Positions 22,946 to 64,000 of a stretch of DNA of 64,000 bases are shown one piece after another. Made by a program: the position numbers and the translations under genes. Source of the DNA: an uncultured Collinsella sp. (GTDB taxonomy: Bacteria; Actinomycetota; Coriobacteriia; Coriobacteriales; Coriobacteriaceae); the NCBI GenBank assembly GCA_934630735.1, contig CAKTWK010000002.1, positions 62,001 through 126,000 of the forward strand. Direction: 5' to 3'. The notes below the pieces were generated by a model that made no database searches, was not told the origin of the DNA, and saw nothing but the letters and a program-made list of their open reading frames with translations. The number at the start of each line of letters is the position of its first letter. Within the stretch, counting starts at the first letter, position 1.

Positions 22946-22952
22946 AACCTCC

Positions 22953-22999
22953 CAAAAAGGGACAGGTTTATTTTGGCAGGTTTTATCTGGGAAAACGTC
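22953..22999 (+). repeat. Dispersed AAAAGGGACAGG-type repeat, copy 1
   Basis: Core CCAAAAAGGGACAGG followed by TTTATTTTGGCAGG and TTTTATCTGGG. Close copies lie at 48807-48855 (plus) and 50748-50790 (minus). Here it follows the RluA-type gene. Confidence 0.8.
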
Positions 23000-30513: not shown

Positions 30514-31134
30514 TTAGGCCATACGGATGGCGACGAGACCATTCTTGGCACCCGGGACAGCGCCCTTGACCAAGATGAGGTTCTGCTCGGCATCGATGCG
30601 GACAACGGAAAGGTTCTTGACGGTAACGCGCTCGTTACCCATGTGACCGGCCATCTTGACGCCCTTGAGGACGCGCGCAGGATAGGCGCACTGGCCGATA
30701 GAACCGGGGTGACGCTGGAAGTGAGAACCATGCGTCATAGGACCGCGGCGCTGACCCCAGCGCTTGATGCGACCCTGGAAGCCCTTACCCTTGGAGGTAC
30801 CGATGACGTCGACCTTCTCGACATCAGCGAAATCAGCGACGGTGACGACCTCGCCGACCTTGTGCTCCTCGCCGTTCTCGACGCGGACCTCACGAAGGAA
30901 ACGGACAGGCTCGACGCCAGCCTTGGCGAAGTGACCAGCCATGGGCTTGTTCACGTTCTTGGCCTTGATGTCGCCGAAACCGATCTGGACGGCGTCATAG
31001 CCGTCGGTTGCCTGAGTTTTAACCTGCGAGACAGCGCAGGGGCCAGCCTGGATGACCGTGACGGGAACGACGTTATCGTTCTCGTCCCAAACCTGGGTCA
31101 TGCCAATCTTGCGGCCGAGAATCATGCTGATCAA
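30514..31134 (-). CDS. rplC: 50S ribosomal protein L3
   Basis: A 206-residue L3: [22 protein letters not shown] at the start and the [23 protein letters not shown] loop near the peptidyl transferase centre. The TTG at 31134 gives [11 protein letters not shown], aligned with the four residues before ILGRKIG in Bacillus L3, and has GGGA ~8 nt ahead. An ATG three codons later is the alternative. It is the first gene of this operon. Its usual upstream partner rpsJ is ~14 kb away, next to fusA. Confidence 0.97.
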
Positions 31135-31318
31135 GATATGATCCCAACTCTCGCGTGGTCTTGGGACAATGCATACACCACCGAGCGTACGCCCCTAGAG
31201 GACCACTACTTACACGACGTGCTAGCCAGCCTTGTATTTCGCCCAGACTACCTGACAACCCTATTAAGCAGGCATTTTGTCCAGCCAGAATACTCCCCTG
31301 GTTTCACACAGCTGTTTA

Positions 31319-31344: not shown

Positions 31345-31392
31345 CGAGATTCATATTTCACTCACATTGTTTACGCAGGTAAAGTGCGTGGA

Positions 31393-31547
31393 GTCGCCTG
31401 GGCTTGGCAGAGGGGCGGCGAAATATATTAAGTTTGCTGCTCTACAGTCCTGCGCAAGACGGAAAGCACATTAAGTGCTTTCCTTTGCGTGCGGAACTCG
31501 CGACAAACTTAATATATTTCGCCGCCCCTCTGCCAAGCTCGGGAGAC
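31393..31547. repeat. Long inverted-repeat element, copy A (upstream of rplC operon)
   Basis: Arms 31403-31436 and 31504-31537 are perfect 34-bp complements. Pairing extends outward about ten more positions with G-T pairs and one mismatch. The 67-nt loop contains CTACAGTCCTG, a GGAAAGCAC/GTGCTTTCC hairpin with the ATTAA tip, and GTGCGGAACTCGCGA. There is no T-tract on either strand. It lies between the 3' end of a phosphatase gene and the rplC promoter region. See copies at 48642-48780 and 63906-64000. Confidence 0.9.
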
Positions 31548-31583
31548 GACACGTTGATGTCTGCTTAACTCTGCTCGTTCAGG

Positions 31584-48058: not shown

Positions 48059-48436
48059 TTATTTGGCCTTGGGGCGCTTAGCACCGTACTTGGAACGGGC
48101 CTGCATACGGTTCTGGACCGGAGCAGCGTCGTAGGCGCCACGGATGACGTGATAACGGACACCAGGGAGGTCACGGACACGACCGCCGCGGACGAGCACG
48201 ATGGAGTGCTCCTGCAGGTTGTGGCCCTCACCCGGGATGTAAGCAGTAACTTCGATGCCGTTGACGAGGCGAACACGGGCAACCTTACGAAGAGCCGAGT
48301 TCGGCTTCTTGGGGCTCGTGGTGAAGACGCGGGTGCAAACGCCGCGCTTCTGGGAGTTGTGCTGCAGAGCAGCGTTCTTGGACTTCTTGGGCACGGAACG
48401 ACGGCCCTGGCGAACCAGCTGGTTAATAGTAGGCAA
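48059..48436 (-). CDS. rpsL: 30S ribosomal protein S12
   Basis: A 125-residue S12. Conserved blocks are [32 protein letters not shown] and [21 protein letters not shown]. The PKKPNS lysine associated with streptomycin sensitivity is the normal residue. First gene of the operon. Confidence 0.98.
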
Positions 48437-48641: not shown

Positions 48642-48780
48642 CGGATTCCCGGCCCGGGCGGCGCGGGGTTAAGTTTGCTGCTCTACAGTCCTGGCTCGCA
48701 CGGAGAGCACATTAAGTGCTCTCCGGCTCGTGCGGAACTCGCGACAAACTTAACCCCGCGCCGCCCGGGCCGGGAATCCG
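48642..48780. repeat. Long inverted-repeat element, copy B (upstream of rpsL operon)
   Basis: Arms 48642-48677 and 48745-48780 are perfect 36-bp complements. The 67-nt loop is the same length as copy A and shares CTGCTCTACAGTCCTG, CACATTAAGTG and GTGCGGAACTCGCGA, while the arm sequence outside TTAAGTTTG differs. Inner stem is GGAGAGCAC/GTGCTCTCC, against GGAAAGCAC/GTGCTTTCC in copy A, a paired change. It lies ~84 bp upstream of the rpsL -35 box. Confidence 0.92.
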
Positions 48781-48806
48781 ACGTGCTCGTCGGGGCAACG
48801 TTACCT

Positions 48807-48855
48807 GCCAAAAAGGGACAGGTTTATTTTGGTCGGTTTTATCTGGGGAAACGTC
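48807..48855 (+). repeat. Dispersed AAAAGGGACAGG-type repeat, copy 2
   Basis: Closely matches 22953-22999 (CCAAAAAGGGACAGG, then TTTATTTTGG, TTTTATCTGGG and AAACGTC). The remaining 48856-49074 stretch has no gene I can support. Confidence 0.8.
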
Positions 48856-49074
48856 GCGCTCCAACGGTGATCTGCTCTCACCTGTCGCATGGAAATCGGC
48901 GGCGCTTTCGGAAGTATGCGGCAAATTCTGGACCCGCCGAGCGCACCGGGGTTTTGCGATAATAAACCCGCAGGTAGAGCGCTTGAGCATATACGGTGTG
49001 GTCGACCCATCAAGATTTTGCCGCATACTTCAGGAATGCAGGCGAATATCGTGCGGTCTAACCGCCCATTTACC

Positions 49075-63087: not shown

Positions 63088-63609
63088 CTAGGCTGCCTTC
63101 TGCTCGGAGACCTGCTGGATCGAACGAGCGAGACCAGAGGAAACGCCGTTGACGCAGACAGCGATGTCGCGAGCGAAACCGGAGATGAGACCGGCGATCT
63201 GGCCGAGAAGCTGATCCTTGGTGGGCAGCTCGGCGATAGCCTTAACATCATCAGCGGAAACGGCCTTGCCGTCGGAGATACCGCCCTTGATCTCAAGGAC
63301 GCCCTTGGACTTAGCAGAGAAGTCCTTAAGGGCCTTAGCGGCCTCGACCGGCTCGGACTCGTAGAACACATAAGCGACGGGGCCGGCGAGGATCTCGTCG
63401 AGCTCGGGCTGCTCCTGGTTCTTGAGAGCGATCTTGACCAGGTTGTTCTTGTAGACCTTCATCTCGGCGCCGCACTCGCGAAGCTGATGACGCAGCTCCT
63501 GAGCCTGCTTAACCGTCAGACCGTTGTAGTTGACGACGAACAGACCGGCGTTCTCGGCGATACGGGACTCGATCTCTGCAACCTTGTCGATTTTGTACTG
63601 CTGGGGCAT
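63088..63609 (-). CDS. rplJ: 50S ribosomal protein L10
   Basis: A 173-residue L10 with an N-terminal RNA-binding domain (ENAGLFVVNYNGLTVKQAQEL) and a C-terminal helix that anchors L7/L12 dimers. GAGGAGG precedes the ATG. The leader upstream carries a terminator hairpin, fitting L10-controlled attenuation. rplK-rplA are not in the window. Confidence 0.97.
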   Translation of the reverse strand: MPQQYKIDKVAEIESRIAENAGLFVVNYNGLTVKQAQELRHQLRECGAEMKVYKNNLVKIALKNQEQPELDEILAGPVAYVFYESEPVEAAKALKDFSAKSKGVLEIKGGISDGKAVSADDVKAIAELPTKDQLLGQIAGLISGFARDIAVCVNGVSSGLARSIQQVSEQKAA

Positions 63610-63825: not shown

Positions 63826-63854
63826 ATTATGGCGGGGACCCCGGCGTCGGTCAA
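63826..63854 (-). promoter_or_regulatory. Promoter of rplJ-rplL
   Basis: Minus-strand TTGACC, 17-nt spacer, CATAAT. The leader of ~210 nt that follows contains the attenuator. Confidence 0.75.
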
Positions 63855-63905
63855 CGGGTGCGAGGATTCGTACACAAACCCTGCATACGCTCCGGTCCGA
63901 GGGGC

Positions 63906-64000
63906 CGGGTTGAGATTTTCGCTCGGTCAAGTCCTGGCTCGCACGAAGGCCACATTAAGTGGCCTTCGGCTCGTGCGGAATCTACGAAAATCTCAACCCG
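63906..64000. repeat. Long inverted-repeat element, copy C (upstream of rplJ), cut by window edge
   Basis: Arms 63906-63921 and 63985-64000 are perfect complements (CGGGTTGAGATTTTCG type), with the right arm cut at the window end. The 63-nt loop has AGTCCTGGCTCGCACG, a GAAGGCCAC/GTGGCCTTC hairpin with the ATTAA tip, and GTGCGGAATC. Its left arm begins ~52 bp upstream of the rplJ -35 box. Confidence 0.88.

What the first reader, a model, noticed from the sequence alone, without database searches (positions are those of the whole stretch)
31393..31547. A long inverted-repeat element sits upstream of three separate ribosomal-protein operons
Copies at 31393-31547 (rplC operon), 48642-48780 (rpsL operon) and 63906-64000 (rplJ operon) share a conserved loop: AGTCCTG, a hairpin tipped CACATTAAGTG-like, and GTGCGGAA. 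Each is flanked by long perfect inverted arms (34, 36 and at least 16 bp). All three have the same orientation relative to the downstream operon and lie 206-297 bp before the first start codon. For rpsL and rplJ, where I can place a promoter, they lie 84 and 52 bp upstream of the -35 box. No copy was found elsewhere in the 64 kb, not even before rpoB. They lack T-tracts, so they are not ordinary terminators. Possible roles are a cruciform/upstream regulator that coordinates r-protein operons, an insulator, or a structured RNA. I do not recognise this as a described element.
Basis: partly seen in the sequence, partly recalled or inferred. Interest (0 to 1): 0.9.

Follow-up and report, generated by a model that had tools for sequence, protein, structure and literature searches.

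The report
Gene-boundary hairpins with self-matching arms
The three hairpins before ribosomal-protein operons are copies of a repeat that sits at gene edges in many members of one bacterial class, with a fixed centre and very long arms that change in sequence yet stay matched to each other, so they are not a ribosome-specific switch.

Summary
All three copies exist at the stated places, 100 shuffles never give the core, and the folds are far more stable than chance. The r-protein interpretation is mostly wrong. The nearest held genome has 23 exact cores and a complete relative 32 copies, one of them weak, beside nrdD, polA, gyrA, gatB, leuS and others. A covariance model matches 61 of 65 family and 86 of 158 class genomes. 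Most copies start close behind a stop codon, core strand in sense; a smaller class, the three window copies included, lies before a gene with the core antisense. Divergent promoter regions are almost avoided. Three close relatives lack the copy at rplJ or rpsL with the promoter intact. The core is conserved between families. The arms differ at every locus and diverge faster than the left flank, yet 94.5-99.8% of arm pairs are Watson-Crick, with mirrored indels and almost no G-U. My reading: a new REP-like extragenic palindrome whose arms are kept matched by DNA-level arm-to-arm copying. Its cellular role, perhaps a transcript-boundary hairpin, is inferred only.

The parts
31387..31553 (+). Copy 1 (before rplC): arms 31387-31436 and 31504-31553, core 31446-31496; + is the core strand, antisense to the operon
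   Evidence: 143.6 bits
48642..48780 (+). Copy 2 (before rpsL): arms 48642-48677 and 48745-48780 (perfect, 36 bp), core 48687-48737
   Evidence: 142.4 bits
63906..64000 (+). Copy 3 (before rplJ): core 63930-63980; right arm cut by the window end
   Evidence: 75.6 bits, truncated; complete orthologues
63844..63870 (-). Outer arm of copy 3; overlaps the rplJ -35 region (TTGACC); its inverted copy would lie beyond the window end
   Evidence: seen in the orthologue L066/L156; partner not in the window
30514..31125 (-). rplC (ribosomal protein L3), gene downstream of copy 1
   Evidence: orthologue L064 is Pfam Ribosomal_L3
48059..48436 (-). rpsL (ribosomal protein S12), gene downstream of copy 2
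   Evidence: orthologue L065 Pfam S12
63088..63609 (-). rplJ (ribosomal protein L10), gene downstream of copy 3
   Evidence: orthologue L066 Pfam L10
31584..32210 (-). Gene upstream of copy 1 (histidine-phosphatase-like, by eye only); 30 bases between its stop codon and the outer arm
   Evidence: a 145-aa piece of the orthologue (L064:5029-5463) had no Pfam hit at 1e-10

Best explanation
The three copies belong to a dispersed, extragenic palindromic repeat found across the class Coriobacteriia. Shown: each copy is a long rod-like hairpin with (a) a conserved asymmetric internal loop, GCTCNGACAGTCCT / GCGGAACTCGC, capped by a covarying apical stem, and (b) arms of 11-49 bp (median 33) whose sequence is private to the locus but almost perfectly Watson-Crick paired. 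Shown, on my own gene calls: copies sit at gene boundaries with the 5' side of the core towards the neighbouring gene, either close behind its stop codon (main class) or before its start (the r-protein copies). Inferred: the arms stay matched because replication switches template from one arm to the other and copies it, a DNA-level process; this explains mirrored indels, near-absence of G-U pairs, the lack of a preference for the sense strand, and outer arms that copy the end of a coding sequence. Inferred with less certainty: the hairpin separates neighbouring transcripts (3'-end barrier or read-through barrier) and is kept or tolerated for that, as has been proposed for REP elements. It is not a dedicated r-protein regulator.
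For: Copy number and spread. Covariation: 308 double-changed cells against a shuffled mean of 104, 90.3% of cells paired against 38-47% in slid structures. Context of 55 elements in G003, G018 and the window: left/right gene strands relative to the core +- 17 (plus 1 inside a called gene), -- 17, ++ 16, -+ 2, one side missing 2. Context of 42 elements, mostly of other genera: ++ 16, +- 14, -- 9, -+ 0, one side missing 3; 23 of 31 stop-to-arm distances are at most 25 bp (a few loci are orthologues). Arm lengths. Concerted arms at four orthologous sites: arm identity 0.75-0.86 against 0.86-0.99 for 150 bp of left flank, with Watson-Crick pairs 845/849, 553/585, 608/621 and 661/662. Mirrored 4-bp indel at rplC. 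G-U on the core strand in 6 of 1118 pairs. In the class behind stop codons 12 G-U against 22 A-C of 1012 pairs. Outer arms score at least 10 in 11 of 61 copies (8 distinct loci) against 2 of 242 mismatched controls, and in some loci include codons of the neighbouring gene (nrdD, L054/L021) or a promoter (rplJ, L066). Template switching is reported to create and maintain stems (PMC8794818, passages seen).
Against: No transcript, termination or template-switch event was observed; the function is inferred from position. Terminator-like sites often coexist: when the core is antisense to the upstream gene one often lies before the element, and when it is in sense one often lies after it, which weakens the idea that the hairpin is needed for termination. 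In that scan gene ends with an element had a terminator-like site in 22 of 32 cases, without one in 53 of 128, so elements do not replace terminators. Before valS, leuS, thrB and cysS the element abuts the start region, where a simple terminator would be harmful. Core conservation across families and sites shared with distant Collinsella (thrB, nrdD, cysS, rplC) are more than a passive repeat needs. The arm/flank contrast is weaker on the right side, where flank identity is 0.68-0.88, and at rpsL the right flank is less conserved than the arms. L363 carries mismatched arms of two haplotypes, so correction is not immediate.
Confidence: 0.6

Rival explanations
1. A cis-acting RNA: the internal loop is bound by a protein or ligand, and the long helix is its scaffold in 3' UTRs and 5' leaders, regulating mRNA stability or translation of neighbouring genes.
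For: Loop and apical-stem conservation across families; orientation follows the neighbouring gene, and a rough reading of replichores shows no replication-strand bias; tight spacing to stop codons or starts; sites shared by distant species at thrB, nrdD, cysS, rplC.
Against: Almost no G-U in the arms and no preference for the sense strand; at rplC, rpsL and rplJ the element lies upstream of the promoter read by eye; mirrored indels.
Confidence: 0.27
2. A dedicated upstream regulator or cruciform that coordinates ribosomal-protein operons.
For: Copies before rplC, rpsL and rplJ in nearly all aerofaciens-like genomes examined; copies before genes include other translation and transcription genes, rpoB in one other genus among them.
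Against: 29 of 32 copies in G003 are elsewhere; absent at most r-protein loci fetched outside the close clade; missing at rplJ in G009 and at rpsL in G025 and G020 with promoters intact.
Confidence: 0.06
3. A MITE or REP moved today by a transposase in the genome.
For: Dispersed, both orientations, inverted pairs, 0 to 52 model matches per genome, hairpins counted on both strands; one G001 site (L005) has no element in the matching stretch of the window and G003.
Against: 21 of 23 G001 loci correspond to an element locus of G003; where relatives lack the element at rplJ or rpsL, partial remnants or a larger missing stretch are seen, not a clean excision; 0 of 20 fetched Y1-transposase loci carries an element within 1.5 kb and G018, with about 23 copies, has no Y1 match; arms are not fixed terminal repeats.
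Confidence: 0.1
4. A large intrinsic terminator.
For: Behind stop codons and filling some convergent gaps (L332, L338, L339, L350).
Against: No T-tract seen; conserved loop; ordinary terminator-like sites stand beside it.
Confidence: 0.07

Closest known systems
REP / BIME (repetitive extragenic palindromes)
   Same: Dispersed, extragenic, hairpin-forming, many copies, some within 15 nt of a stop codon (PMC12306157, passages seen), in alternating orientations in BIMEs (PMC2817692, abstract start in the listing).
   Different: REPs are 20-40 bp (PMC3733652, abstract start); here the arms are 11-49 bp and private to each locus while an internal loop is conserved; no Y1 (RAYT) transposase beside it in the 20 loci checked. 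That REP stems are conserved in sequence is recalled.
MITEs (ERIC, Correia and the like)
   Same: About 130-170 bp, dispersed, palindromic.
   Different: No conserved terminal repeats, no clean empty site or target duplication found; sites old and mostly shared. ERIC and Correia features are recalled.
Hairpins kept by template-switch mutation (rRNA stems, microRNA loci; PMC8794818, passages seen)
   Same: Perfect stems created and corrected by copying one arm onto the other; several matched changes at once.
   Different: There, stems of rRNA genes and single microRNA loci; here a dispersed family with a common core in one bacterial class.
Collinsella-1 RNA (RF01700)
   Same: Structured candidate from the same genus (PMC2864571, table passage).
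   Different: At most one copy per Collinsella genome in the 5 tested, 0 in G003 and G018, no hit in the window; a different RNA.
Ribosomal-protein leaders
   Same: Conserved structure near r-protein operons.
   Different: Lies upstream of the promoter, and most copies are not near r-protein genes.

Membership tests
REP/BIME | Many dispersed extragenic palindromes | tested here: met
   32 places in G003, between called genes except one weak hit inside a called gene
REP/BIME | Near stop codons, avoids divergent promoter regions (the second part recalled) | tested here: met
   divergent 2 of 55 (2 of these 55 lack one neighbour) and 0 of 39 with both neighbours; 23 of 31 stop-to-arm distances at most 25 bp
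REP/BIME | Short (20-40 bp) with conserved stem and GTAG/CGTC tag | tested here: not met
   about 135-170 bp; stem sequence private to each locus; tag not searched for by a call, none seen in the alignment
REP/BIME | Linked RAYT/Y1 transposase | tested here: not met
   0 of 20 fetched Y1 loci with an element within 1.5 kb; G018 has copies but no Y1 match
MITE | Conserved terminal inverted repeats | tested here: not met
   arms differ at each locus; arms of different loci match at 0.24-0.40
MITE | Clean empty sites with target duplication | tested here: inconclusive
   no clean empty site among the loci fetched; absences seen are not clean
Intrinsic terminator | Stem followed by a T-tract | tested here: not met
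   window copies by eye and by scan at copy 1
r-protein leader | Transcribed between promoter and r-protein gene | tested here: not met
   element is upstream of the conserved promoter; promoters read by eye, not mapped
Rfam family | Match at gathering score | tested here: not met
   0 in the window; in 10 other loci one hit, an L31 leader away from the element; best permissive matches are microRNA hairpin models
Template-switch-maintained stem | Matched changes in both arms, including indels, with few wobble intermediates | tested here: met
   the mutational event itself was not observed
Structured RNA | Transcription of the element | not testable with these tools
   no RNA data available

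The most novel reading that the evidence does not exclude
A self-templating palindrome: a conserved internal-loop core that, once beside a gene, causes the DNA around it to be copied in inverted form, so that each copy grows and refreshes its own locus-specific arms, at times including the gene's last codons or its promoter. Such an element would be recognised by its loop and by perfect duplex arms of any sequence, probably by a class-specific protein, and would mark gene boundaries in Coriobacteriia.
Probability: 0.2. Interest if true: 0.85.

Novelty: new variant of a known kind. Interest (0 to 1): 0.62.

Why it matters
It is a natural set of dozens of long palindromes per Collinsella genome, with orthologues in some twenty close genomes, whose arms evolve fast yet stay matched. 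That makes a standing question directly testable in bacteria: are long stems kept by selection on RNA or by template-switch copying of DNA? It also warns that strong covariation, usually taken as proof of a functional RNA, can arise without an RNA-strand signature. If the loop has a binding partner, a class of common gut bacteria has an undescribed way of marking gene ends.

Tried and rejected
R-protein-specific regulator: rejected as the main reading. REP with RAYT: tested with PF01797 over 42 genomes, no link. Known RNA: Rfam at gathering and permissive thresholds and Collinsella-1 directly, no match; the permissive microRNA matches only reflect a long hairpin. RNA strand by wobble pairs: an early count suggested an A-C excess, 29 against 9, but much of it is one conserved mismatch near the core; the later counts show no G-U preference on the sense strand. 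A second conserved motif outside the arms (GTTNACTT-like) looked real by eye but k-mer counts over 72 loci did not support it. A simple 'stop codon near the left arm' letter count was not informative, 38 of 72 against 28 in the control; only gene calls were. Replication-strand bias: none, by a rough reading of replichores. Clean insertion sites: none found. Element counts from the model are inflated because hairpins match on both strands, so I counted copies by place. Gene calls are from my own ORF scorer, not from annotation; start distances may be off. Class-level model hits above about E=1e-8 may be plain hairpins; of 30 loci read in other families and orders (L325-L354), 25 show the core by regular expression, 4 more by eye and 1 (L351) does not. 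A first divergence count missed 10 rplJ copies and one L074-site copy because its regular expression was too narrow; one search repeats it with a wider one, and I give only. It still lacks L160 at rplJ, which the model finds, and the cut or absent copies.

Full report
Observation. The core pattern never arose in 100 shuffles and the folds have z-scores of -8 to -17 over both strands. The model finds only these three places in the 64 kb. Rfam has no match at gathering score.

Genome-wide family. The window's assembly is not held. The nearest genome, G001, shares 50% of the window's sampled 31-letter words and has 23 exact copies of the core. I aligned 25 copies, 23 of G001 and 2 of the window (A1), and built a covariance model R1. 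Pair counts on A1: 90.3% of cells paired, 308 cells changed on both sides against a shuffled mean of 104, and 38-47% paired when the structure is slid. Nearly every arm pair varies; three pairs beside the loop (TCC/GGA) never do. R1 matches 40 of 43 genus genomes, 61 of 65 family genomes in 5 of 6 genera and 86 of 158 class genomes in 38 of 80 genera. Matches are counted on both strands; in the complete genome G003 I count 32 places, one of them weak (48 bits). In the few loci read from other orders the constant part shrinks to the internal loop GCTCNGACAGTCCT / GCGGAACTCGC with a free apical hairpin.

Context. For 55 elements (32 in G003, 20 in G018, 3 in the window, the last three being orthologues of G003 sites) the neighbouring gene strands relative to the core were +- 17, inside a called gene 1, -- 17, ++ 16, -+ 2, one side missing 2. 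For 42 elements, mostly of other genera and with a few orthologues among them, they were ++ 16, +- 14, -- 9, one side missing 3, -+ none. So divergent promoter regions are nearly avoided. In the main class the arm starts close behind a stop codon of a gene read in the core's direction: 23 of 31 within 25 bp. In the second class the core is antisense to the next gene and the arm lies close before its start (6 of 9 within 25 bp) or farther up; the r-protein copies belong here. Gene calls are from my own scorer.

Neighbours. Pfam hits in G003 fit NrdD, PolA, ClpX/ValS, GuaB/LeuS, PTS/HPr, MetK/serine dehydratase, Def/Fmt, RNase J/PNPase, L3, S12, L10, GroES, ThrC/ThrB, PMI, UvrD, MurB, CstA, TsaD, GyrA and GatB, among others (50 of 55 neighbour proteins were submitted; gene names partly inferred from the domain). 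Six of the 13 second-class copies in G003 lie before valS, leuS, rplC, rpsL, rplJ or groES; the others lie before sdaA, rnj, thrB, cstA, a solute-binding protein and two genes not identified. Ten second-class genes submitted from other genomes were cysS, a 2-hydroxyacid dehydrogenase, tgt, a cupin regulator, queT, PEPCK, rpoB, an ABC/CbiQ protein, RapZ and RecO. Translation genes look frequent; I had no background to test it.

R-protein sites in relatives. rplC: present in 20 of 20 close loci and 1 of 9 distant ones; the thirtieth fetched locus, L114, is not an rplC locus. rplJ: 21 of 30 loci, among them L151 cut by a contig end and L166 from a more distant species; missing in L147 and in L167-L174. 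rpsL: 17 of 30 loci, two of them cut by contig ends; missing in L361, L369, L370 (contig end) and in all 10 distant loci. More genomes matched these genes than the 30 loci fetched per search. L147 looks like a deletion between CCTGG repeats; L361 has lost core and one arm; L369 lacks the whole stretch; the promoters remain. In two distant species other long inverted repeats stand at the rplC place (L119, L122, by eye).

How the arms evolve. At rplC, rpsL, rplJ and the L074 site (21, 16, 18 and 18 copies) mean pairwise identity is 0.80, 0.86, 0.86 and 0.75-0.76 for the arms, 0.94, 0.86, 0.92 and 0.89 for the core, 0.94, 0.99, 0.96 and 0.86 for 150 bp of left flank, and 0.85, 0.68, 0.88 and 0.83 for the right flank; yet 845/849, 553/585, 608/621 and 661/662 arm pairs are Watson-Crick, with G-U/A-C counts of 0/3, 5/9, 3/6 and 0/1. 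So arms outrun the left flank at all four sites and the right flank at three; at rpsL the right flank differs by a separate insertion. At rplC one haplotype group carries a 4-bp insertion on both arms. In the 42 elements of G003, G018 and the window that passed the arm filter (of 55), 6 of 1118 arm pairs are G-U on the core strand and 20 are A-C, many of these a conserved mismatch near the core. In the class behind stop codons, away from the core, there are 12 G-U, 22 A-C and 12 other mismatches in 1012 pairs of 53 loci; in the other class 4, 3 and 4 in 539 pairs of 24 loci. Wobbles are thus not favoured on the transcribed strand. Pairing falls from 0.98 near the core to background by about 40 bp in G003 and 30-35 bp in G018. 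Beyond the inner arms, 11 of 61 copies (8 distinct loci) have an outer inverted repeat scoring at least 10, against 2 of 242 controls; at nrdD the left outer arm is the last codons of the gene and the right one a slightly decayed inverted copy. L363 joins the left arm of one haplotype to the right arm of another and is not matched (by eye). These facts fit repeated copying of one arm onto the other during replication, a process described for RNA stems (PMC8794818, passages). Selection for a perfect duplex alone would need matched indels.

Is it mobile? 21 of 23 G001 loci correspond to an element locus of G003; L017 found no match among the loci held, and L005 matches only by its flank, where the window and G003 have no element and the junction is not clean. 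The L074 site is occupied in all 18 genomes matched over its full length. Distant Collinsella with few copies share sites with aerofaciens: thrB in three further species, rplC in one. I found no clean empty site. Y1 transposases occur in 36 of 42 genomes but G018, with about 23 copies, has none, and 0 of 20 fetched Y1 loci has an element within 1.5 kb. So it is an old, slowly changing repeat rather than a visibly active one.

Terminators. By my simple scan, gene ends with an element also have a terminator-like site in 22 of 32 cases, gene ends without one in 53 of 128; the element does not take the place of ordinary terminators.

Literature. Searches for Collinsella/Coriobacteria/Eggerthella repeats and structured RNAs listed no description of it. 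A human-microbiome RNA survey names one Collinsella candidate in its main text, HMP2_254 (51 bp, before L7/L12), and some palindromic candidates, but its tables were not open to me (PMC8040213, passages). Collinsella-1 (RF01700, PMC2864571, passages) is another RNA. REPs near stop codons are described in PMC12306157 (passages); its main text mentions neither Collinsella nor Eggerthella.

Verdict. A real and, as far as these searches show, undescribed repeat of the class: REP-like in distribution, new in build, and not r-protein-specific. The DNA-level upkeep of the arms is well supported indirectly; the boundary role is a best guess.

Noticed in passing
window 31145-31210 (minus strand, before rplC): Between the conserved promoter (TGTATACTAA) and rplC lies a conserved leader, GTGGTCCTCTAGGGGCG...GTCCCAAGACCAC, whose inner stem appears to covary among the Collinsella species aligned (by eye): a candidate r-protein leader.
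   Followed up: no
window 48906-49036: A second inverted repeat (43-nt arms, 77%; TTCGGAAGTATGCGGCAAA...) missing in G005, where window 48909 is joined to 49066, so a likely separate MITE.
   Followed up: partly
window 48800-48840 and 22947-22999: Another short repeat (CCTGCCAAAAAGGGACAGGTTTATTTTGGTCGG) recurs beside several elements and elsewhere.
   Followed up: no
L119 and L122 (rplC), L170 (rplJ): In other Collinsella species unrelated long palindromes occupy the same stretch before r-protein promoters (by eye).
   Followed up: no
L363 (rpsL site): Arms of two haplotypes joined at the core and still mismatched: a natural recombinant useful for timing arm correction.
   Followed up: partly
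L052, L081, L196, L248: The element stands before cysS in several Collinsella and Coriobacteriaceae genomes, with valS and leuS in G003.
   Followed up: partly
G001 C1, C5, C6 and G003, G018, G029 pairs: Copies often occur as close pairs with cores facing each other, about 130-375 bp apart; in some convergent gene pairs each gene has its own copy.
   Followed up: partly
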